A stretch of 64,000 nt of DNA from Leifsonia shinshuensis (lineage in GTDB: Bacteria; Actinomycetota; Actinomycetes; Actinomycetales; Microbacteriaceae): NCBI RefSeq assembly GCF_031456835.1, contig NZ_JAVDVK010000001.1:62001-126000 (forward strand), given 5' to 3'. Both the position numbers and the translations under genes were made by a program. Below, one piece after another: positions 2,992 to 11,051 of this stretch; within the stretch, counting starts at the first letter, position 1, and each line of letters opens with the position of its first letter. The notes beneath the pieces were generated by a model. That model had not been told where the DNA came from, searched no databases, and saw nothing but the letters and a program-made list of their open reading frames with translations.

Positions 2992-3021
2992 GTCACAGAT
3001 TCCTCGTCTGCGTGGTCCTAG
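2992..3021 (+). promoter_or_regulatory. ECF41-type promoter for the SnoaL-like gene at 3063
   Basis: GTCACA (2992-2997), 17 bases, GTCCTAG (3015-3021), ending 41 bases before the start codon. The spacing is identical to the other copies. GTCACA and a downstream GTC/CGTC element are what is known of ECF41/SigJ promoters; assignment to this sigma factor is inference. Confidence 0.75.
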
Positions 3022-3062
3022 TTGGCGAAGGCAGACGGACAGGTCTGAATGGAGGCACTCGG

Positions 3063-3479
3063 ATGTCAGCGATCGTGCACTGCTGGTGGTCGACGTGGGA
3101 ATGGCTGGCCCGGCCGGTTCGCTACCGGGCGGTGCGCGCGTTGCACGTGGCTGCCGAGACCAAGGACCGGGACCGGTTGAGGAGCCTCCTGACGCCGAAC
3201 GTGTCGGTCGTCGTCGACTCCGGAAGGGGCGACCCCTCGGGCGTCCGCGTGGTCCACGGGATCTCCGACGCTGCCGTGATGCTGGAGCTCGGATTCGCTC
3301 GCAAGCACGGCATCCAGGTCACCGAGCGGTCGGTGAACAACCAGGCCGGACTGATCATCAGCAGAGCCGGCGCCCCGATCGCCTCCGTGGCCGTGGACTT
3401 CACCGGACGTCTCGTCTCGGTGGTCTGGGTCCGCCTGGATCCGGTCGAGCAGCGGCATTGGAACAGCGTCTACGCGTGA
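3063..3479 (+). CDS. Free-standing SnoaL-like protein resembling the sigma-factor C-terminal domain
   Basis: A protein of 138 residues. After an N-terminal Trp-rich piece, it aligns by eye with the C-terminal SnoaL-like domain of the ECF41 sigma factor at 5830. The matching order is a helix 'AxxxxDxxxLxxLL', then VSVVVDSG (sigma: IVSYSDGG), a central NNQAGLIISRAGAPIASV (sigma: NGGPAAVLVRDGAVVAFI), and a closing 'V..V..P...HW'. It has no sigma regions 2 or 4. In ECF41 factors this domain tunes activity, so a free copy could modulate the sigma factor or bind the same ligand; that is inference. ATG 3063 has GGAGG about 8 bases upstream. Confidence 0.75.
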   Translation: MSAIVHCWWSTWEWLARPVRYRAVRALHVAAETKDRDRLRSLLTPNVSVVVDSGRGDPSGVRVVHGISDAAVMLELGFARKHGIQVTERSVNNQAGLIISRAGAPIASVAVDFTGRLVSVVWVRLDPVEQRHWNSVYA

Positions 3480-3515
3480 GCGCCCGGGCTGCGGGGGAGG
3501 TGGGTCACGTCCTCA

Positions 3516-3545
3516 GTCACAAGTGATCCTGCTGCGCGGTCATAG
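3516..3545 (+). promoter_or_regulatory. ECF41-type promoter for the DHA2 efflux gene
   Basis: GTCACA (3516-3521), 17 bases, GTCATAG (3539-3545), ending 38 bases before the ATG at 3584. It is a near-exact copy of the sites at 4985, 6727 and 10196. Confidence 0.8.
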
Positions 3546-3583
3546 CCCGTGACCCCGACGAGCCTCGACACAACGGAGAAGTC

Positions 3584-5014
3584 ATGCCCAACCCCACATC
3601 CGCCCGGCAGCGGCCGAGTACGACGCTGCAGCGGACGGTGCTCGCCATCTCGGTGCTGGCGACCTTCATCGCCTTCCTGGATGGGAGCGTCGTGAACGTC
3701 GCCCTGCCCGCGATCGGCCGCGAACTCGGCGGTGGCCTCGCCGCGCAGCAGTGGGTGGTGGATGCCTACCTGCTGACGCTGGGGTCGGTGATCCTCCTCG
3801 CCGGCTCGCTCTCCGACCTGTTCGGCCGCCGTCGTGTGCTGTTCTGGGGCTTGCTCGGCTTCGCTGTCGCATCGGTCCTGTGCGCTCTCGCACCCACCGC
3901 GGGCGTCCTGATCGTGGCCCGCGGGATGCAGGGAGTCGCGGGTGCGCTTCTCGTCCCCAGTTCGCTCGCCCTGATCTTCAGCAGCTTCAGCGGCGCCGCC
4001 CAGAGCCGCGCCATCGGCATCTGGACCGCCATCACCTCACTGGCGAGCATCGCAGGACCCGTTCTCGGAGGCGTCCTGGTCGACACGCTCTCGTGGCGGT
4101 GGGTGTTCGGCATCAACCTCCTTCCGATCGCGGTCACGTTGCTCCTGCTGCGCGGGCTTCCGGCGGATCCCCCGCGTCGGGCGGATGCGCGTGTCGACTG
4201 GGTCGGAGCGGGCCTGGGCGTCGTCGGTCTGGGGCTTCCGGTGTTCGCCCTGATCGAGCATCCACGGTACGGGTGGGGCTCGCCGCTGATCGCGGGCGCC
4301 GCGGGGCTCGGACTGGTCGCGCTGGTGGCGTTCGTGTGGTGGGAGCGGCGGACGCGGCAGCCCATGCTGCCCCTGGGCATCTTCCGCGCTCGGGACTTCT
4401 CGGTGGGGAACGTCTCGACCGCGTTCATCTACGGAGGGGTGGCGGTCGGCACCTTCGCGCTCGCGCTGTTCCTGCAGCAGGGCGCCGGGTACTCGGCGAC
4501 GCTGGCCGGGTTCGCGATGGTCCCGTCGAGCATCCTGCTGATCGCGTTGTCGGCCTTCTTCGGCCGGCTGAGCGGACGCGTGGGCCCCCGGCTGCTCATG
4601 ACCATCGGACCTCTGATCGCGGGCGCCGGTTTCCTGCTCATGCTGCGCATCGGCGGGAACGCCGACTACGTCACCGAGGTTCTTCCGGCGGTCGCCGCGT
4701 TCGGGCTCGGGATGTCCATCACGGTGGCACCGCTGACGGCGACCATCCTCGGGGCGGTCGACACCGCCCGCTCGGGGATCGCCTCCGCGGTGAACAACGC
4801 GGTCTCCCGTGTCGCGGGCCTGGTGGCGGTCGCCCTGGCCGGATCGGCCGGAGGCGCGATGTCGGCCGTGGGGAGCTTCCACGAGCTGGCCGGCGCGGCG
4901 GCGGTCGCGCTCTTCATCGGCGCGGTGGTGTCGGCCATCGGCATCCGGAACCCGAAGGCGACGGCCGCTCCTGCCGCGACTGTTGTCACAACGGCGCACG
5001 CTGTCCGGTCATAG
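3584..5014 (+). CDS. MFS drug:H+ antiporter, DHA2 (14-helix) family
   Basis: This 476-residue membrane protein is of the length expected for the 14-helix DHA2 group. Motif D1-like residues (FLDGSVVNVALPAI) lie in helix 1, motif A (SLSDLFGRRR) after helix 2, and the antiporter motif C (GPVLGGVLVD) in helix 5. Proton-driven export of drugs or toxic metabolites is the family role. It has its own ECF41-type promoter. Its stop codon lies inside the next gene's -10 element, so transcription of the pump runs directly into the promoter of the epimerase-sigma operon. Confidence 0.92.
   Translation: MPNPTSARQRPSTTLQRTVLAISVLATFIAFLDGSVVNVALPAIGRELGGGLAAQQWVVDAYLLTLGSVILLAGSLSDLFGRRRVLFWGLLGFAVASVLCALAPTAGVLIVARGMQGVAGALLVPSSLALIFSSFSGAAQSRAIGIWTAITSLASIAGPVLGGVLVDTLSWRWVFGINLLPIAVTLLLLRGLPADPPRRADARVDWVGAGLGVVGLGLPVFALIEHPRYGWGSPLIAGAAGLGLVALVAFVWWERRTRQPMLPLGIFRARDFSVGNVSTAFIYGGVAVGTFALALFLQQGAGYSATLAGFAMVPSSILLIALSAFFGRLSGRVGPRLLMTIGPLIAGAGFLLMLRIGGNADYVTEVLPAVAAFGLGMSITVAPLTATILGAVDTARSGIASAVNNAVSRVAGLVAVALAGSAGGAMSAVGSFHELAGAAAVALFIGAVVSAIGIRNPKATAAPAATVVTTAHAVRS
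4985..5014 (+). promoter_or_regulatory. ECF41-type promoter of the epimerase-sigma operon, overlapping a stop codon
   Basis: GTCACA (4985-4990), 17 bases, GTCATAG (5008-5014), 43 bases before the ATG at 5058. The whole promoter lies within the last ten codons of the MFS gene, and the TAG of the -10 element is that gene's stop codon. Because the operon includes the sigma gene, this predicts autoregulation. Confidence 0.8.
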
Positions 5015-5057
5015 CCGGTGAGCCCGTGGACGGACCACGGGCCGGAACGGAGAAACC

Positions 5058-5819
5058 ATGAGGATCGTCGTCGTCGGAGGGACGGGGCTGATCGGCCGGC
5101 CGCTGGTGGAGTCGCTGCGCGAGCAGGGGCACGACGCCGTGGCGGCTTCGCCGTCCACTGGTGTGGACACGGTCACCGGCGCCGGGCTCGCGGAGGTGCT
5201 GCGCGGCGCGGACGTGGTGGTCGACACCCCGAACGCGCCGTCGTTCGAGGACGGGCCGGTGCTCGACTTCTTCGAGCGCTCGACCGGGAACCTCGTCGCA
5301 GCCGAGAAGGATGCGGGGGTGCGGCATCACGTCGTGCTCTCGATCGTCGGCGCCGACCGGCTGCCCGACATCGGCTACATGCGGGCGAAGACCGCCCAGG
5401 AGCGGATCGTGCGCGAGAGCGGCATCCCGTTCACGATCGTGCGCGCCACGCAGTTCTTCGAGTTCATCGGCGCGCTGACGGATGGCGCGACGCAGGGTGG
5501 CACGGCCGTGCTGTCGGATGTGCTCATGCAGCCGATCGCGGCGGCCGACGTGTCGGCGGCGCTCGCCGATGCGGCGACCGCGCGACCCGCCGACGCCGTG
5601 ATCGAGCTGGCGGGTCCCGAGCCGCTCCGCCTCGACGAGCTCGCGCGCCGGCTCCTCGCCGCTCGCGGCGACGACCGCGAGGTCGTGACCGACCCGGCCG
5701 CCGGCTACTTCGGCGGAACCGTCGACGACCGTTCCCTGGTTCCCGGGAACGACCCTGCGATCACCGACCAGCGCTTCGGGAGCACGACGTACTCCCGCTG
5801 GCTGGAGGGTGCTCGCTAG
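5058..5819 (+). CDS. NAD(P)-binding epimerase-like protein (atypical SDR), copy 2
   Basis: A protein of 253 residues with GGTGLIG at positions 7-13 and Tyr107-xxx-Lys111. It is homologous along its whole length to the product of 2147-2914. Its gene is 10 bases from the sigma-factor gene and certainly co-transcribed with it. ECF41 sigma genes are typically linked to carboxymuconolactone decarboxylase, oxidoreductase or epimerase genes; this is the oxidoreductase/epimerase partner. It probably acts on a small reactive or quinone-like metabolite in the cytoplasm, but the substrate is not evident. Confidence 0.88.
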   Translation: MRIVVVGGTGLIGRPLVESLREQGHDAVAASPSTGVDTVTGAGLAEVLRGADVVVDTPNAPSFEDGPVLDFFERSTGNLVAAEKDAGVRHHVVLSIVGADRLPDIGYMRAKTAQERIVRESGIPFTIVRATQFFEFIGALTDGATQGGTAVLSDVLMQPIAAADVSAALADAATARPADAVIELAGPEPLRLDELARRLLAARGDDREVVTDPAAGYFGGTVDDRSLVPGNDPAITDQRFGSTTYSRWLEGAR

Positions 5820-5829
5820 CATTTCGACC

Positions 5830-6723
5830 ATGTCCGGGGAGACAGCGCACGCCGACGACCTGACCGCCGCAGCGGAGACGTTCGCGGCGGTCCGGCCGCG
5901 CCTGTTCGGCATCGCCTACCGGATGCTCGGCACCGTGGCCGACGCCGAGGACATCGTCCAGGACACCTGGGAGCGCTGGCAGAGCACCGACCGCAGCGTC
6001 GTGCGGGAACCGGCCGCGTTCCTGGCGACCACGACGACCCGGCTCGCCATCAACCAGGCGCAGTCGGCGCGCGTGCGGCGCGAGACCTACATCGGTCCGT
6101 GGCTGCCCGAACCGGTCGACACGAGCGCCGACCCGCTGCTCGGCGCGGAGCGGGGCGAGGCGCTGGAGTTCGCCGTGCTCGTGCTCCTGGAGTCGCTCTC
6201 GCCGACGGAGCGCGCCGCGTACGTGCTCCGCGAGGCGTTCGACTACCCGTACCGGCAGATCGCGGAGATCATCCAGGGCACCGAGGCGTCGGCGCGGCAG
6301 CTGGTGAGCCGGGCGCGCAAGCATCTCGCCGAGCAGCGGCATGTGCGTGAGGCCGGCAGGCAGGAGCAGCGGCGGATGCTGGAGGCGTTCCTCGACGCGG
6401 CGAAGTCGGGCGACATCGCCGAGCTCGAGCGGATCTTCACCGCGGACATCGTCAGCTACTCCGACGGCGGCGGCCTTGCCCGCGCGTCGCGCATCCCCGT
6501 GTTCACCCGGGAGACGGTCGCGAAGTACGTGCACGCGTTCCACACGCGGTTCTGGGATGGGACCGTTCACGTCGTCGAGGCGAATGGCGGGCCGGCGGCG
6601 GTGCTGGTTCGCGACGGTGCCGTCGTCGCGTTCATCGCGCTCGATGTGACTGCGGACGGCATCCGCCGCCTGCAGTGGGTGCTGAACCCCGAGAAGCTGG
6701 AGCACCTGCCCGTACCGGCCTGA
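5830..6723 (+). CDS. ECF41/SigJ-type RNA polymerase sigma factor with fused SnoaL-like regulatory domain
   Basis: A protein of 297 residues. Region 2 spans about 20-50 (RLFGIAYRML...DAEDIVQDTWERW) and region 4 about 122-166 (LSPTERAAYVLRE...ARQLVSRARKHL). The linker carries the ECF41 signature WLPEP (91-95). Residues from about 180 to the end form a SnoaL-like domain with DGGG (212-215), another family hallmark. ECF41 factors lack a classical anti-sigma factor, and their own C-terminal domain controls activity. ATG 5830 is taken as start because it is closest to the family N-terminus; an in-frame start at 5809 is possible. Co-transcribed with the upstream SDR and probably self-activating. Confidence 0.93.
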   Translation: MSGETAHADDLTAAAETFAAVRPRLFGIAYRMLGTVADAEDIVQDTWERWQSTDRSVVREPAAFLATTTTRLAINQAQSARVRRETYIGPWLPEPVDTSADPLLGAERGEALEFAVLVLLESLSPTERAAYVLREAFDYPYRQIAEIIQGTEASARQLVSRARKHLAEQRHVREAGRQEQRRMLEAFLDAAKSGDIAELERIFTADIVSYSDGGGLARASRIPVFTRETVAKYVHAFHTRFWDGTVHVVEANGGPAAVLVRDGAVVAFIALDVTADGIRRLQWVLNPEKLEHLPVPA

Positions 6724-6726
6724 CCT

Positions 6727-6756
6727 GTCACAGAACAGCCTGCTGTCTTGTCATAG
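6727..6756 (+). promoter_or_regulatory. ECF41-type promoter of the NDH-2 / cytochrome b operon
   Basis: GTCACA (6727-6732), 17 bases, GTCATAG (6750-6756), 48 bases before the ATG at 6805. It begins three bases after the sigma gene ends. Confidence 0.8.
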
Positions 6757-6804
6757 CTGTTGAGAGGATCGGCGTGGCGCCGGTCCCGGGACAGGGAGGC
6801 TGTG

Positions 6805-8169
6805 ATGCGCCGGATCCTCGTGGTCGGCGGCGGGTACGCCGGTTTCTACACCGCATGGAAGCTGGAGAAGAAGCTCCGGCGCGACGAGGCGGAGATCGTG
6901 GTGATCGATCCGCGGCCGTACATGACGTACCAGCCGTTCCTGCCCGAAGTCGCGGCCGGGTCGATCGAGGCCCGGCACGCCGCCATCCCGCTGCGCAGCC
7001 ACCTCAAGCGGACCCGGCTCATCCACGCGAGCGTCACCCGCATCCACCACGCGTCGAAGACGGTGACGGTGCTGCCGAAGGACGGCGAGCCGTTCGAGCT
7101 CGGCTACGACATCGTCGTCGTCACCGCGGGCGCCGTGACGCGCACGTTCCCCATCCCGGGCGTCATCGAGAACGCGATCGGGATGAAGCACGTCGAGGAG
7201 GCCGTCGCCATCCGCGACCGCCTGCTCGACGCCTTCGACCGCGCCGCCGTGCTGCCACCCGGACCGGATCGGAGCCGCCTGCTGACGGTCGCGTTCGTCG
7301 GCGGCGGGTTCTCGGGCGTCGAGGGCTTCGGCGAGACGCTCTCGCTCGCGACCGCGCTGCTGAAGTCGTACCCCGAGCTCACGTTCGCGGACCTGTCGTT
7401 CCACCTCATCGAGGCGCGCAACCGCATCCTCCCGGAGGTCACCGACGAGCCGGGACGCTGGGTGGTGCGAGCACTGGAGCGCCGCGGGGCGCACATCCAC
7501 CTGGATGCGCAGCTCGTCTCGGCCGAGGGCGGCCACCTGGTGCTCTCGACCGGTCAGGAGTTCGACGCGCACACCATCGTGTGGACCGCCGGCAACGGCG
7601 CGAACCCGGTCGTCGCCAACCACACCGACCTGCCGGTCACCGCGCGCGGATCGGTCATGGTCCGCGCCGACCTGCGGGTGGGAACGCCGGAGGCGGTCGT
7701 GCCCGACGCTTGGGCGGCGGGCGACGACGCCGCAGTGCCCGACCTCGCATCGCCCATCGAGGGCGCCATCACCGTCCCGAACGCCCAGCACGCCGTACGG
7801 CAGGCGAAACGGCTGGCGAAGAACATCGTCGCGACGCTCCACGGCGAGCAGCCGAAGGATTACGTGCACCACAGCCTGGGCGTCGTCGCGACTCTCGGAC
7901 TCGGCACGGGGATCTTCCAGTGGCGCGGAATCGTGATCACCGGCTTCCTCGCCTGGGTGATGCACCGCGGCTACCACGTGCTCGCGATCCCGACCTGGGA
8001 GCGCAAGGTGCGGGTGCTCCTCATCTGGGCGAGCGCCGTGTTCTTCGGCCAGGACATCGTCTCGCTGCTCTCGGTGCAGCATCCGCGCCGCGCCTTCGCC
8101 GGCGAGACGGGCGACCTCGAGGTGGCCGACCGCGAGGTGGCCGACCGCGAGAGAGTCGGGAGCTTCTGA
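6805..8169 (+). CDS. ndh: Type II NADH:quinone oxidoreductase (NDH-2)
   Basis: A protein of 454 residues. The FAD-binding loop is at the N-terminus (ILVVGGGYAGFYTAW), the NADH-binding loop mid-protein (FVGGGFSGVE), and there is a C-terminal FAD motif (AAGDDAAVP). A final amphipathic/hydrophobic stretch (VITGFLAWVMHRGYHV... RVLLIWASAVFFG) would seat it on the inner membrane face. Single-subunit, non-proton-pumping oxidation of NADH with menaquinone reduction is the family reaction. GGGAGG lies 5 bases before ATG 6805. The next gene starts in the stop codon (TGATG), so the two are translationally coupled. The C-terminal tail has a 15-bp internal duplication. Confidence 0.92.
   Translation: MRRILVVGGGYAGFYTAWKLEKKLRRDEAEIVVIDPRPYMTYQPFLPEVAAGSIEARHAAIPLRSHLKRTRLIHASVTRIHHASKTVTVLPKDGEPFELGYDIVVVTAGAVTRTFPIPGVIENAIGMKHVEEAVAIRDRLLDAFDRAAVLPPGPDRSRLLTVAFVGGGFSGVEGFGETLSLATALLKSYPELTFADLSFHLIEARNRILPEVTDEPGRWVVRALERRGAHIHLDAQLVSAEGGHLVLSTGQEFDAHTIVWTAGNGANPVVANHTDLPVTARGSVMVRADLRVGTPEAVVPDAWAAGDDAAVPDLASPIEGAITVPNAQHAVRQAKRLAKNIVATLHGEQPKDYVHHSLGVVATLGLGTGIFQWRGIVITGFLAWVMHRGYHVLAIPTWERKVRVLLIWASAVFFGQDIVSLLSVQHPRRAFAGETGDLEVADREVADRERVGSF
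8119..8148 (+). repeat. 15-bp tandem duplication in the NDH-2 tail
   Basis: GAGGTGGCCGACCGC occurs twice in succession (8119-8133, 8134-8148), encoding EVADR twice in the charged C-terminal tail. It looks like a recent slippage event. Confidence 0.85.
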
Positions 8170-9830
8170 TGCCTGTCGACCGTAGGATCCACCCCTCCGT
8201 CACCGCCCGCCTGTCCCGGGTCGTGTCGAACACCTCCGCCGGCCGCCGCGCCGTGGGGCTGCGCGAGGAGCTCAGGATGCGCCGGGCGCCGCTGCACTGG
8301 ACGAACCTCTTCGGAGTGGTCGCCTTCGCCTGCGTGGTCGTGCTGTTCGTGACCGGGTTCATCCTAATGTTCGCGTACGCGCCCTCCAGCGATCGCGTGA
8401 CCTACGACGGGCCGTACCTCCCGCTCGCCGGCGCGGAGATGTCGAAGGCGCTCCGGTCGACCCTGGCCGTGACGTTCGAGCTCCCCGGCGGCCTGCTGGT
8501 GCGGCAGGCGCACCACTGGGCGGCCCTGCTGCTGCCGGCGGCGCTCATCCTGCAGCTCGCCGTCAGCTTCTTCACCGGAGCGTTCCGGCGCCCGCGCCGC
8601 CTCTCGTGGGTGCTTCTCTTCGGGCTGTTGATCACCGCGCTCATCGGCGGGTGGAGCGGCTACGCCCTCCCCGACGACATGCTCTCGGGCACGGGCCTGC
8701 GGATCGTCGAAGGGATCGTGCTCGGCATCCCGGTCGTCGGCACCTGGCTCTCCGCGTTGCTGTTCGGCGGGGAGTTCCCGGGGCGGATCATCGAGAACCT
8801 GTATCCCATCCACGTAGCCGTCGTTCCGGTGCTGCTCGTCGTGCTGATCGCCGCCCGTGCCCGGAGTGCGTACGTGAACGGGCCGGTGCAGTTCGCCGGG
8901 CCCGGCCGCACCGAAGAGCGCGTCGTCGGGGTCCCGGTCTGGCCGAACCTCGCCGTGCGAGCGGGCGGACTGTTCGCGCTCGTCACCGGCGGCCTGCTCC
9001 TGGTCGCCGCGACGGTCACCATCAGCCCCATCTGGCTGTACGGGCCGTCCTCACCCGGCGCCGCGTCGGCGGGAAGCCAGCCCGACTGGTACACCGGGTT
9101 CCTCGACGGCGCGCTGCGCCTCGTCCCGCCCGGGTGGGAGGTGGTGTGGCTCGGTCGCACCTGGACGCTCGCAATCCTCGTCCCGTTGGCCGTCGTCGGC
9201 CTGTACCTCCTCGCCGTCGCCGTCTACCCGTTCGTCGAGCAGTGGGTGACCGGTGACCGGCTGGACCATCGCATCCTCGACCGCCCCAGGAATGAGCCGA
9301 CCCGCACCGGGCTCGGCGTCGCCGCCCTCGTCTTCTACGGCGCCCTGTGGGGAGCGGGCAGCGCGGACCTGGTCGCGACGCACTTCCACGTCACCGTCGA
9401 GTCGGTCGTCGCGCTGTACCAGGCGATCGTCGTCCTCGGCCCGGTCGTCGCCTTCCTGGTGACGCGGCGGGTCTGCCTCGCGCTGCAGAAGCGCGACCGG
9501 GAGATCCTCGTGCACGGTTACGAGACCGGGCGCATCGTCCGGCTGCCCGGTGGCGAGTACGTCGAGGTCCACTCGGATGTCGATGCGGCCGAGCGCTACC
9601 GTCTGGCCGGCCCGACGGCGGTGCGAGCGGACGATGTGCGTCCGGACGAGGCCGGTCGGCTGCGACTCGCGGAAAGGGTGCGCGGCGCTCTCGCGCGCAT
9701 CTTCTTCGAGGACAGGCTGCAGCCCGTGGACGATGGCGACCCCGGTGGAGGACGAACGGATGAGGCGATCGGGCAGAGCGGGACGGAGCGCGCGGATCAG
9801 GTCGCGGCGCCGCGGATCGACGCGGCGTGA
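8169..9830 (+). CDS. QcrB-like cytochrome b lacking the second heme's His ligands
   Basis: A protein of 553 residues similar throughout to the actinobacterial bc1 cytochrome b, with EMSKALRSTL before helix B and the quinol-site PDWY in QPDWYTGFL. Helix B reads RQAHHWAA, with His115 and His116, but 14 residues after His115 stands Gln129. Helix D has His215 (YPIHVAV), while the positions 14 and 15 residues later are Ala229 and Arg230. By family knowledge the first His of each helix binds heme bL and the second binds heme bH. So one heme site is kept and the other lost. No Rieske or cytochrome c gene is adjacent. Starts at TGATG with ndh. Confidence 0.88.
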   Translation: MPVDRRIHPSVTARLSRVVSNTSAGRRAVGLREELRMRRAPLHWTNLFGVVAFACVVVLFVTGFILMFAYAPSSDRVTYDGPYLPLAGAEMSKALRSTLAVTFELPGGLLVRQAHHWAALLLPAALILQLAVSFFTGAFRRPRRLSWVLLFGLLITALIGGWSGYALPDDMLSGTGLRIVEGIVLGIPVVGTWLSALLFGGEFPGRIIENLYPIHVAVVPVLLVVLIAARARSAYVNGPVQFAGPGRTEERVVGVPVWPNLAVRAGGLFALVTGGLLLVAATVTISPIWLYGPSSPGAASAGSQPDWYTGFLDGALRLVPPGWEVVWLGRTWTLAILVPLAVVGLYLLAVAVYPFVEQWVTGDRLDHRILDRPRNEPTRTGLGVAALVFYGALWGAGSADLVATHFHVTVESVVALYQAIVVLGPVVAFLVTRRVCLALQKRDREILVHGYETGRIVRLPGGEYVEVHSDVDAAERYRLAGPTAVRADDVRPDEAGRLRLAERVRGALARIFFEDRLQPVDDGDPGGGRTDEAIGQSGTERADQVAAPRIDAA

Positions 9831-10179
9831 GGCCGAGCACGCGGCCCTCATCGAGGGGTTCCGCGACGCGTGCCTGGCATCCGACATCGCGGAGCTCGCG
9901 CGGCTGCTCGGGCCTGAGGTTCGAGTCGTCGTCGATTCCGGGGGCGCCGAGGGCGCTCCGGGTCCGGCCGCGGGCATCACCGCCGCCGTCACCCTGCTGC
10001 GTGTCGCACTCGGCGCTCCGGCCGGTCTGAGGCTCGACCTCCGTTCCGTCAACGGGCGGCCGGGCCTGCTGGCGTCCCGCGATGGACGGCCCACCGCGGT
10101 GGTCGTCGTGGAGGGGCGACGTGGCCTGGTGGAGGGTGTGTGGCTCGTCACCGACGCGGGCAAGCTTCGGCACTGGTGA
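9760..10179 (+). CDS. Second free-standing SnoaL-like (sigma-C-terminal-like) protein
   Basis: The product is 139 residues: an Arg-rich N-terminus of about 25, then a domain like that of 3063-3479 and the sigma factor C-terminus (SDIAELARLLGPEVRVVVDS, VNGRPGLLASRDG, closing GKLRHW). ATG 9760 has GGAGGA 7 bases upstream. This makes the gene overlap the tail of the cytochrome b gene by 71 bases in another frame, so the two are presumably coupled. It is the last gene of the ndh operon. It could act on the sigma factor or bind a metabolite; neither is shown. Confidence 0.75.
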   Translation: MRRSGRAGRSARIRSRRRGSTRREAEHAALIEGFRDACLASDIAELARLLGPEVRVVVDSGGAEGAPGPAAGITAAVTLLRVALGAPAGLRLDLRSVNGRPGLLASRDGRPTAVVVVEGRRGLVEGVWLVTDAGKLRHW

Positions 10180-10195
10180 GCGACGGCGCCGGCTG

Positions 10196-10225
10196 GTCAC
10201 ACCGTGAGCGGGGTTCCGGTCATAG
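10196..10225 (+). promoter_or_regulatory. ECF41-type promoter for the alpha/beta hydrolase gene
   Basis: GTCACA (10196-10201), 17 bases, GTCATAG (10219-10225), 55 bases before the ATG at 10281. This is the sixth and last copy found. Confidence 0.8.
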
Positions 10226-10280
10226 CTGGCGGGAAGGACGCGACCGCGTCCTCGGACACCATCCATCAAGGAGCACGACC

Positions 10281-11051
10281 ATGAACGAACCCACCCTCGA
10301 GTACACCGAGAGCACGACGGACCAGAAGCCCGTCGTCGTGCTAGTGCACGGCGCATTCGCCGAGTCCGCCAGCTGGAACAGCGTCATCGGAATCCTGAAC
10401 CGCAACGGTATCGAGTGCATCGCCGTTGCCAACCCACTGCGCAGCCTTGCGGGCGATGCGGCGTACGTTCGCGACGTCATCGCTGCGGTCGGCCGACCCG
10501 TCGTCCTGGTGGGGCACTCCTACGGAGGGCTCGTCATCTCCGAGGGCGCTGCAGGCAACCACAACGTGAGCGCGCTCGTGTACGTCAACGCATTCGTGCC
10601 CGAGCACGGTCAGACGGCGTTCGACCTCTCGACGGAGTTCCCCGGGAGCACCCTCGCCGACGCCCTCTCGCCGCGCACGCTCAGCGACGGCAGTGTGGAG
10701 CTGGTGATCCGGCCCTCCGTCTTCCGCGATCAGTTCTGCGCAGACGTGCCGGAGGAGACGGCCGCACTCATGGCGGCGACGCAGCGCCCGGTCACTCAGG
10801 CGGCGCTCACGGAACCGCTGTCTGCCGAGACGCCGGCGTGGAAGAGCATCCCCTCATGGTGCGTGTTCAGCGACCAGGACCGGAACATCCCTGTCGCAGA
10901 GCACCGCGCGGGGGCCGCGCGGGCGAAGGCTCGGGTGGTCCGTGAGGTACCGGGAGGCTCGCACGCTCTGAGCGTCTCCCGGCCGGAGGCGGTGGCGGAG
11001 GTCATCATCGATGCGGTGTCCGCGGGCCGAGCTTCGAGCGTCGCAGCCTGA
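10281..11051 (+). CDS. Alpha/beta-fold hydrolase
   Basis: A protein of 256 residues. VVLVHGAFAES marks the oxyanion-hole strand and LVGHSYGG the nucleophile elbow, with the Ser near residue 80. SDQDRNIP fits the acid region and GGSHALSVSRP supplies the catalytic His. It belongs to the esterase/haloperoxidase-like group often annotated as salicylate-esterase-like. It has its own ECF41-type promoter and a good AAGGAG site before ATG 10281, so it is a probable member of the sigma regulon. No signal peptide; cytoplasmic. Confidence 0.88.
   Translation: MNEPTLEYTESTTDQKPVVVLVHGAFAESASWNSVIGILNRNGIECIAVANPLRSLAGDAAYVRDVIAAVGRPVVLVGHSYGGLVISEGAAGNHNVSALVYVNAFVPEHGQTAFDLSTEFPGSTLADALSPRTLSDGSVELVIRPSVFRDQFCADVPEETAALMAATQRPVTQAALTEPLSAETPAWKSIPSWCVFSDQDRNIPVAEHRAGAARAKARVVREVPGGSHALSVSRPEAVAEVIIDAVSAGRASSVAA

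What the first reader, a model, noticed from the sequence alone, without database searches (positions are those of the whole stretch)
8169..9830. QcrB-like cytochrome b that has lost one heme's ligands
His115 and His215 (first His of helices B and D) are kept, but the partner positions are Gln129 and Ala229/Arg230. In bc1 cytochrome b the second His pair binds heme bH. The quinol-site PDWY is intact. With no Rieske or cytochrome c gene alongside, this looks like a one-heme membrane quinone protein, possibly working with NDH-2 instead of complex III.
Basis: partly seen in the sequence, partly recalled or inferred. Interest (0 to 1): 0.85.

Follow-up and report, generated by a model that had tools for sequence, protein, structure and literature searches.

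The report
One-heme cousin of respiratory cytochrome b
Many soil actinobacteria carry, beside their normal respiratory cytochrome b, a second copy that has lost the binding site of one of its two hemes and the nearby quinone site while keeping the other half, and here it sits behind stress-type promoters, so nature appears to have made a mutant that biochemists built on purpose.

Summary
Window 8169-9830 (+) encodes a 553-aa QcrB paralog. The heme bL histidines (H115, H215) and PDWY are kept; the two bH ligand positions are Gln129 and Arg230 (R230, not A229, is the aligned position). This is a conserved family, not decay: Gln129 in all 120 listed best hits, query included; dN/dS 0.16-0.24 in six pairs; one clade. 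The helix-C glycine is Leu and the quinone-reduction (QN) glutamate mostly Val, while the quinol-oxidation loops stay conserved.
The genome also has a complete ctaE-qcrCAB, so this is an extra copy, not a replacement for complex III. NDH-2 lies directly upstream in 18 of 36 named relatives and 0 of 41 normal copies. An ECF41/SigJ-type sigma gene lies nearby; its likely promoter motif occurs five times in the genome, all in this cluster, once before NDH-2-qcrB.
Best reading: a natural 'bH knockout' cytochrome b, probably stress-induced, that oxidises menaquinol at its outer half and probably works with the normal Rieske/cytochrome cc subunits. Heme content, partners and reaction are untested. 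A second lineage with the same changes may be independent (not proven).

The parts
8169..9830 (+). one-heme-type QcrB paralog, 553 aa
   Evidence: Pfam Cytochrome_B and Cytochrom_B_N_2; NCBIfam bc1_QcrB_actin 540.9 bits against cut-off 500, own normal QcrB 752.7
8511..8513 (+). His115 codon, bL ligand kept
   Evidence: 280 of 281 rows picked for Gln129; 248 of 249 after near-duplicates are removed
8553..8555 (+). Gln129 codon, bH ligand position (His in 91 of 91 normal rows)
   Evidence: 120 of 120 listed best hits; 95 of 97 further hits
8616..8618 (+). Leu150 codon, replaces the helix-C glycine (Gly in 91 of 91 normal rows)
   Evidence: 186 of 186; 273 of 281 in the wider set
8811..8813 (+). 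His215 codon, bL ligand kept
   Evidence: 281 of 281
8856..8858 (+). Arg230 codon, bH ligand position (His in 91 of 91 normal rows)
   Evidence: Arg in 266 of 281
9081..9092 (+). PDWY, quinol-oxidation (QP) site motif
   Evidence: 279 of 281
6805..8169 (+). NDH-2 (type II NADH dehydrogenase); stop overlaps the cytochrome start (TGATG)
   Evidence: Pyr_redox_2; best solved match NADH dehydrogenase-like protein SAOUHSC_00878 E 3e-32
5830..6723 (+). ECF41/SigJ-type sigma factor with a C-terminal extension; carries WLPEP (ORF may start at 5809)
   Evidence: SigX4 and SigJ models over cut-off (given 5809-6720); WLPEP is named as an ECF41 feature in PMC3426412
5058..5819 (+). NmrA-like NAD(P)-binding oxidoreductase/epimerase (SDR)
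3584..5014 (+). MFS exporter, DHA2 type; start uncertain
3063..3479 (+). small protein like the C-terminal domain of SigJ
9760..10179 (+). second small SigJ-C-terminal-like protein, overlaps the end of the cytochrome gene; start uncertain
   Evidence: models matched in ORF 9550-10176
10281..11051 (+). alpha/beta hydrolase; start uncertain
   Evidence: given 10185-11048
2992..3021 (+). ECF-type promoter motif GTCACA-N17-GTCCTAG before the small protein at 3063
3516..3545 (+). promoter motif GTCACA-N17-GTCATAG before the MFS gene
4985..5014 (+). promoter motif before the SDR-sigma pair; overlaps the end of the MFS gene
6727..6756 (+). promoter motif before NDH-2-cytochrome
10196..10225 (+). promoter motif before the hydrolase

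Best explanation
It is an extra QcrB from which the cytoplasmic-side (n-side) half of the cytochrome b machine, heme bH and the quinone-reduction (QN) site, has been removed, while heme bL, the quinol-oxidation (QP) site and its outer loops stay under selection: a natural version of the laboratory 'bH knockout'. SHOWN by sequence: the ligand and pocket changes, their conservation, the clade, the normal copy elsewhere in the genome, the NDH-2 and sigma neighbours, and the promoter motif. INFERRED: the protein binds one heme (bL). Under stress the ECF41-type sigma factor turns on NDH-2 and this cytochrome; NDH-2 feeds electrons into menaquinol; the paralog enters bcc complexes with the normal QcrA (Rieske) and QcrC, alone or as one half of a mixed dimer with normal QcrB. 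It then oxidises menaquinol at QP, gives one electron to the Rieske centre, and cannot return the other through its own bH. That electron would either cross the dimer from bL to the normal partner's bL and bH, or drain in a non-recycling, uncoupled route. I put loss of bH binding at about 0.93, a redox role at QP/bL at about 0.65, and assembly with QcrA/QcrC at about 0.45.
For: Q129 in the 120 listed best hits and in 95 of 97 further hits of a second search. Rows picked for Q129 (186, of which 159 differ by more than 2%) were compared with 91 normal rows (81 distinct): E50 is V in 164 of 186 and E in 91 of 91; G150 is L in 186 and G in 91; H230 is R in 178 and H in 91; H239 is P in 166 and H in 91; N146, F40 and Y261 are mostly replaced; K238 is kept in 61 of 186. 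E50, F40 and Y261 align by my mapping with E49, F39 and F262 of the M. tuberculosis QN site (passages of PMC8616580). The cd and ef loops stay close to normal QcrB (identity 0.62 and 0.61, against 0.74 and 0.70 among normal copies) while TM1, TM4, the D-E loop and TM5 diverge (0.37, 0.34, 0.40, 0.41 against 0.73, 0.56, 0.69, 0.72); the cytoplasmic C-terminal part is also kept (0.49 against 0.54). dN/dS 0.16-0.24 in six pairs. Two relatives (L082, L132) are half-way: H129 kept, Tyr at 230, Ala or Val at 150; they branch between the clade and the normal copies. Five promoter motifs in 3.79 Mb, all here; the control pattern has none. An orphan QcrB of Streptomyces coelicolor, QcrB3, co-purifies with bcc-aa3 components (passages of PMC7931247). 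Engineered bc1 dimers lacking bH in one half still pass electrons bL to bL (passages of PMC4330944).
Against: I found no heme, binding or expression data for any member. By PMC4330944 a bc1 lacking both bH hemes shows no profound antimycin-sensitive cytochrome c reduction, so a homodimer should be a poor enzyme. Residues next to the bL ligand in helix D also change (R210 to H or N, 213 to P), so the dimer face or bL environment may differ. The contrast is not simply inside against outside: the n-side B-C and F-G loops are fairly well kept too (0.65 and 0.66), and I set the region borders by hand. In two outlying groups the QP motif itself is changed (ALWF in L208, Leu at 306 in both L208 and L209; PPWY in L246, L248, L250) while the bL histidines stay, which argues that quinol oxidation with a Rieske partner is not the role there. 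No QcrA or QcrC gene was found within four genes of a Q-type copy (0 of 36; 0 of 26 in a second, partly overlapping set). The sigma-promoter pairing is inferred. The motif stands before NDH-2 or the cytochrome gene in 6 of 11 other genus members read, and before neither in 5; in the non-genus loci scanned it was not seen before these genes.
Confidence: 0.45

Rival explanations
1. A stand-alone one-heme membrane quinol dehydrogenase paired with NDH-2: NDH-2 makes menaquinol on the inside, the paralog oxidises it on the outside through bL and passes electrons to an extracytoplasmic acceptor (for example the exported Rieske lipoprotein found elsewhere in the genome), with no bcc complex.
For: NDH-2 directly upstream in 18 of 36 named Q-type loci and 0 of 41 normal ones; the genome has a 153-aa Rieske protein with a twin-arginine-like, lipoprotein-like N-terminus by my reading.
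Against: That Rieske protein is in 28 of 28 genus members, while the paralog is in 16 of 28, so they do not go together specifically; NDH-2 is not beside half of the paralogs; I saw no linked acceptor gene.
Confidence: 0.22
2. A bypass that tolerates poisons: a QcrB without a QN site cannot be blocked by QN-site inhibitors made by neighbouring microbes, and is switched on together with an exporter, a hydrolase and an oxidoreductase.
For: Several QN-site residues are replaced; the same promoter motif precedes a DHA2-type exporter and a hydrolase.
Against: Removing bH along with QN should cost most of the turnover; I searched for no inhibitor link; a relative of the exporter lies within four genes in 1 of 36 named Q-type loci.
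Confidence: 0.13
3. A non-catalytic subunit: a decoy or assembly and regulatory version of QcrB that binds bL only for folding and lowers supercomplex activity or signals its state.
For: The bL ligands and overall sequence are kept even where PDWY is lost; small SigJ-C-terminal-like proteins lie beside it.
Against: In the main clade PDWY is kept (279 of 281) and the cd and ef loops are more alike among paralogs (0.81, 0.84) than among normal copies (0.74, 0.70), which a decoy would not need at the QP site.
Confidence: 0.15
4. Heme bH is still bound, through other ligands or an unseen rearrangement.
For: Cys55 (78%) is a newly conserved residue near the n-side of helix A; single rows keep one bH histidine (one HHHR, one HQHH among 97).
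Against: No new conserved His; both ligands are lost together with the helix-C glycine.
Confidence: 0.05

Closest known systems
QcrB of the actinobacterial bcc-aa3 supercomplex (NCBIfam NF050120, PF00033/PF13631)
   Same: Fold (the nine best Foldseek hits are actinobacterial QcrB, TM by query 0.70-0.74), bL ligands, PDWY, cd and ef loops, C-terminal part; passes the NCBIfam cut-off.
   Different: Both bH ligands, the helix-C glycine and several QN residues are gone; not in a qcrCAB operon; an extra copy.
Orphan QcrB2/QcrB3 of Streptomyces coelicolor (PMC7931247)
   Same: Second cytochrome b genes away from qcrCAB; QcrB3 co-purifies with supercomplex components in the paper (passages).
   Different: Nine second copies without QcrA/QcrC hits in the stretch read keep all four histidines, Gly150 and Glu50; three of them (L260-L262) are on named Streptomyces plasmids, and L239, L242, L244 are unnamed but group with Streptomyces rows. 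Three more such copies in the same reading (L246, L248, L250) do not. The SCO7120 and SCO7236 sequences themselves were not compared.
Engineered bH knockout (H212N) of Rhodobacter capsulatus cytochrome bc1 (PMC4330944)
   Same: A cytochrome b with bL and a working quinol site but no bH; asymmetric dimers use bL-bL transfer (passages).
   Different: One laboratory substitution, against a conserved natural family with the pocket remodelled.
ECF41 sigma factor clusters (PMC3426412)
   Same: WLPEP motif, C-terminal extension, epimerase/oxidoreductase neighbour, GTCACA core of the -35 and the same spacing.
   Different: The paper reports generally a single target gene or operon; here five promoter copies, one before respiratory genes. 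The base before GTCACA is T in two of the five sites, and the -10 reads GGTC or TGTC, not CGTC.

Membership tests
QcrB, cytochrome b of the bcc complex | Four histidine ligands for two b hemes | tested here: not met
   Q129 and R230 at the bH positions
QcrB, cytochrome b of the bcc complex | bL ligands and the PDWY-type quinol-oxidation motif | tested here: met
   H115, H215, PDWY
QcrB, cytochrome b of the bcc complex | Gene with qcrC and qcrA | tested here: not met
   0 of 36 and 0 of 26 paralog loci; 33 of 41 normal loci
QcrB, cytochrome b of the bcc complex | Overall sequence model and fold | tested here: met
   540.9 bits against cut-off 500; fold match
QcrB, cytochrome b of the bcc complex | Two b hemes in spectra; complex with Rieske and cytochrome cc | not testable with these tools
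   needs purified protein
NDH-2 | Sequence relationship to solved type II NADH dehydrogenases | tested here: met
ECF41 sigma factor | WLPEP linker motif and C-terminal extension | tested here: met
   motif read in the ORF; SigJ and SigX4 models over cut-off; feature named in PMC3426412. Pfam's SnoaL models did not hit at E 0.001
ECF41 sigma factor | Target promoter TGTCACA-n16-CGTC | tested here: inconclusive
   GTCACA core and spacing agree; the first -35 base is T in two of five sites and the -10 differs at its first base

The most novel reading that the evidence does not exclude
Actinobacteria evolved, at least twice, a cytochrome b that keeps only the quinol-oxidising half, and use it under ECF41-type control to form mixed dimers with normal QcrB, in which electrons must cross from bL to bL: a built-in switch from a Q-cycling to a partly non-cycling bcc-aa3 supercomplex.
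Probability: 0.2. Interest if true: 0.93.

Novelty: new variant of a known kind. Interest (0 to 1): 0.74.

Why it matters
bH-less cytochrome b was known to me only as a laboratory mutant, used to argue whether electrons cross the bc1 dimer. A conserved natural family would let that question, and the need for the Q-cycle, be tested in cells that chose it. Many of these genes are annotated as ordinary bc1 cytochrome b subunits in databases (names; the NCBIfam model accepts the window's protein), so automated respiratory-chain reconstructions are likely to misread them.

Tried and rejected
Pseudogene or sequencing error: rejected by conservation, clade and dN/dS.

Another histidine taking over bH: none found.

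Specific pairing with the exported Rieske protein: not supported, since it is in all 28 genus members searched.

Structure model: the QP loops had low confidence (pLDDT under 50 at 288-305, block means 54-66 over 161-210). A control model of the own normal QcrB, also with 41 rows, was weak in the same regions, so I draw nothing from it. The normal copy was also weak at its N-terminus and D-E loop where the paralog was confident; the two alignments differ in diversity, so this is suggestive only.

Independent origin of the second group (L246, L248, L250): the tree puts it beside its own normal QcrB (SH-aLRT 99), but the AU test of one clade gave p 0.083, so it is favoured, not shown. The ligand columns were left in for both.

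One alignment (A4) held a wrong gene from L191 and was replaced by A5. L105, L106, L157 and L190 were missed by my gene caller and read by tblastn; they are not in the 186 and 91.

Literature: searches listed no paper whose title or abstract start describes a natural bH-less QcrB. Of the listed papers I saw passages of six: PMC8616580, PMC8361435, PMC4330944, PMC3426412, PMC8999054 and PMC7931247. Only open-access papers are held, so this is weak evidence of absence.

Full report
What is there. The ORF at 8169-9830 (+) encodes a 553-aa QcrB homolog. Its start overlaps the stop of an upstream NDH-2 gene by one base (TGATG). The host genome is one 3.79 Mb contig; the best named homologs are from Leifsonia, so I call it Leifsonia-like. 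The same genome has a normal copy in a ctaE-qcrC-qcrA-qcrB cluster with ctaF, ctaD and ctaC beside it (the cta and qcrC names are my reading of the sequences), cytochrome bd, two further NDH-2-like genes (59% and 39% identical), QcrC as the only protein hit by the CBB3-type cytochrome c model, and four Rieske domains of which one is QcrA.

Ligands. Aligned with the own normal QcrB (50% identity) and solved actinobacterial QcrB chains, H115 and H215 are the bL histidines. The bH histidines are replaced by Q129 and R230; the helix-D spacing is 15, so R230, not A229, is the partner. Which pair serves bL and which bH follows from established cytochrome b topology (recalled). Among the 120 listed best hits, the query included, Q129 is 120, R230 116, H115 119, H215 120, PDWY 119; the search scored 7,567 relatives but listed only these. 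A second search seeded with distant members gave 97 new sequences: 95 Q129, one Gly, one His; one of the 95 keeps His230.

More than two ligands. 186 rows picked for Q129 (159 distinct at under 98% identity) were compared with 91 normal rows (81 distinct); two half-way rows were set apart. Invariant in the normal rows and switched in the paralogs: E50 (V in 164 of 186), G150 (L in 186), H230 (R in 178), H239 (P in 166). N146, F40 and Y261 are mostly replaced; K238 is kept in 61. Passages of PMC8616580 list QN-site residues F39, E49, L225, L232, W236 and F262 in M. tuberculosis QcrB; by my own alignment arithmetic these fall on P0001 40, 50, 224, 231, 235 and 261. Positions 224 and 235 say little, since normal rows vary there or do not carry Trp. 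By region, the cd and ef loops are close to normal QcrB, and TM1, TM4, TM5 and the D-E loop are far from it; but the n-side B-C and F-G loops are also fairly well kept. The region borders were set by hand and the two sets differ in taxonomic breadth, which biases such averages.

History. A maximum-likelihood tree of 64 rows (34 of the 186 paralogs and 28 of the 91 normal rows, chosen by me, plus both half-way rows) puts the paralogs in one clade (SH-aLRT 100), with L082 and L132 between it and the normal copies. Those two keep H129, E50, N146 and Y261 but have Y230, A or V150 and P239, as a stepwise loss would leave. Pairwise dN/dS is 0.16-0.24 for six paralog pairs and 0.08-0.14 for ten normal pairs: weaker, but clear, constraint. 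In a second tree (56 rows) two further groups appear. L208 and L209 join the clade's base, with PDWY changed to ALWF in L208. L246, L248 and L250, from another order, sit beside their own normal QcrB: two with Q129 and one with His129, all three with L150, and R, R and W at 230. Holding all one-heme types together costs 35 log-likelihood units, AU p 0.083, so a second origin is favoured but not proven.

Distribution. In the genus 16 of 28 genomes have the paralog as well as the normal copy; the ligand positions of all 16 paralogs were read: 16 Q129, 15 R230, one Leu. In a family sample at least 18 of 299 genomes have one, counted from the listed rows with 57% or more identity to the query, one of them half-way; the listing was cut, so this is a lower bound. 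Named hosts of Q-type copies include Leifsonia, Agromyces, Microbacterium, Humibacter, Okibacterium, Pseudolysinimonas, Pseudactinotalea, Isoptericola (MAG), Promicromonospora, Myceligenerans, Antribacter, Microlunatus and Nocardioides. In a class sample of 79 genomes, with four plasmid loci added, I read the copies that were fetched: nine second copies without QcrA/QcrC hits in the stretch read, three of them on plasmids, keep all four histidines, and only L246, L248 and L250 do not. Being an orphan and being one-heme are therefore separate traits.

Neighbours (genes called by my own script, contig ends not corrected for). NDH-2 lies directly upstream on the same strand in 18 of 36 named Q-type loci and 0 of 41 normal ones; in a second set of 26 family and genus loci, partly the same organisms and one of them half-way, it is 9. 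QcrA or QcrC within four genes: 0 of 36 and 0 of 26, against 33 of 41 normal. A SigJ-like sigma gene lies within four genes in 10 of 36 and 16 of 26, and in 1 of 41 normal loci, and beside both half-way copies and L208/L209. The window's sigma factor passes the SigX4 and SigJ models and carries WLPEP, an ECF41 hallmark (PMC3426412, passages).

Promoters. GTCACA-N17-GTCATAG occurs four times in the window, against none in 100 shuffles. With GTCMTAG it occurs five times in the whole genome, all in this cluster and all on its strand; the control pattern has none. I wrote the pattern after seeing sites, so the shuffles are not a blind test; the genome-wide confinement to one cluster is the stronger fact. 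In 11 other genus members read, a slightly looser pattern stands before NDH-2 in three (L059, L061, L063), directly before the cytochrome gene in three without NDH-2 (L065, L066, L069), and before neither in five (L060, L062, L064, L067, L068); it was not seen before these genes in the non-genus loci scanned (L125 is the same organism's locus as L065). PMC3426412 gives TGTCACA-n16-CGTC and generally a single target; the GTCACA core and spacing agree, the first -35 base is T in two of five sites, and the -10 differs at one base. That this sigma factor reads these promoters is inferred.

Function. The kept half is the half that oxidises quinol. In bc1 the second electron then goes bL to bH to the inner site. 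Passages of PMC4330944 describe the engineered mutant without bH and asymmetric dimers in which electrons pass from bL to bL. Passages of PMC7931247 report that an orphan QcrB (QcrB3) co-purifies with bcc-aa3 components, though the authors say replacement is not proven. Together these make assembly with the normal QcrA/QcrC, possibly as mixed dimers, my leading but unproven mechanism. Against it stand the lack of linked partners, the altered helix-D start (210, 213), and the outlying groups that changed PDWY.

Verdict. The interpretation 'one-heme' is likely; 'instead of complex III' is not supported; 'with NDH-2' is true for about half.

Noticed in passing
window 2992-10225: Five copies of an ECF-type promoter motif, all in one 7-kb cluster and no exact match elsewhere in the genome; ECF41 factors are described as having generally one target.
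   Followed up: yes
window 3063-3479 and about 9760-10179: Free-standing small proteins that resemble the C-terminal regulatory domain of SigJ; they recur beside many relatives and might bind the same signal or titrate it.
   Followed up: partly
L208 8938-10485 and L209 1476-3023: A further paralog with bL histidines and Q129 but PDWY changed (ALWF in L208), flanked by two SigJ-like genes.
   Followed up: partly
L263 10242-11843 and L264 10757-12358: Q129/L150 cytochrome b of another order with PPWY, followed directly by genes for lipoprotein-like, perhaps serpin-like, proteins (serpin likeness recalled, not searched).
   Followed up: no
L260, L261, L262: Streptomyces plasmid-borne orphan QcrB with all four histidines, next to a FAD-dependent monooxygenase or NAD(P)-binding protein, pcaB and a DUF3099 gene.
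   Followed up: partly
L205 2203-2664: 153-aa exported-looking Rieske protein, present in 28 of 28 genus members; function unknown to me.
   Followed up: partly
L007 132-1492: The NDH-2 gene beside this relative's paralog matches in two pieces in different frames, so it may be broken or mis-sequenced there.
   Followed up: no
window 8169-9830, NCBIfam NF050120: The model bc1_QcrB_actin accepts the one-heme paralog (540.9 bits against 500), so it would be annotated as an ordinary bc1 subunit.
   Followed up: yes
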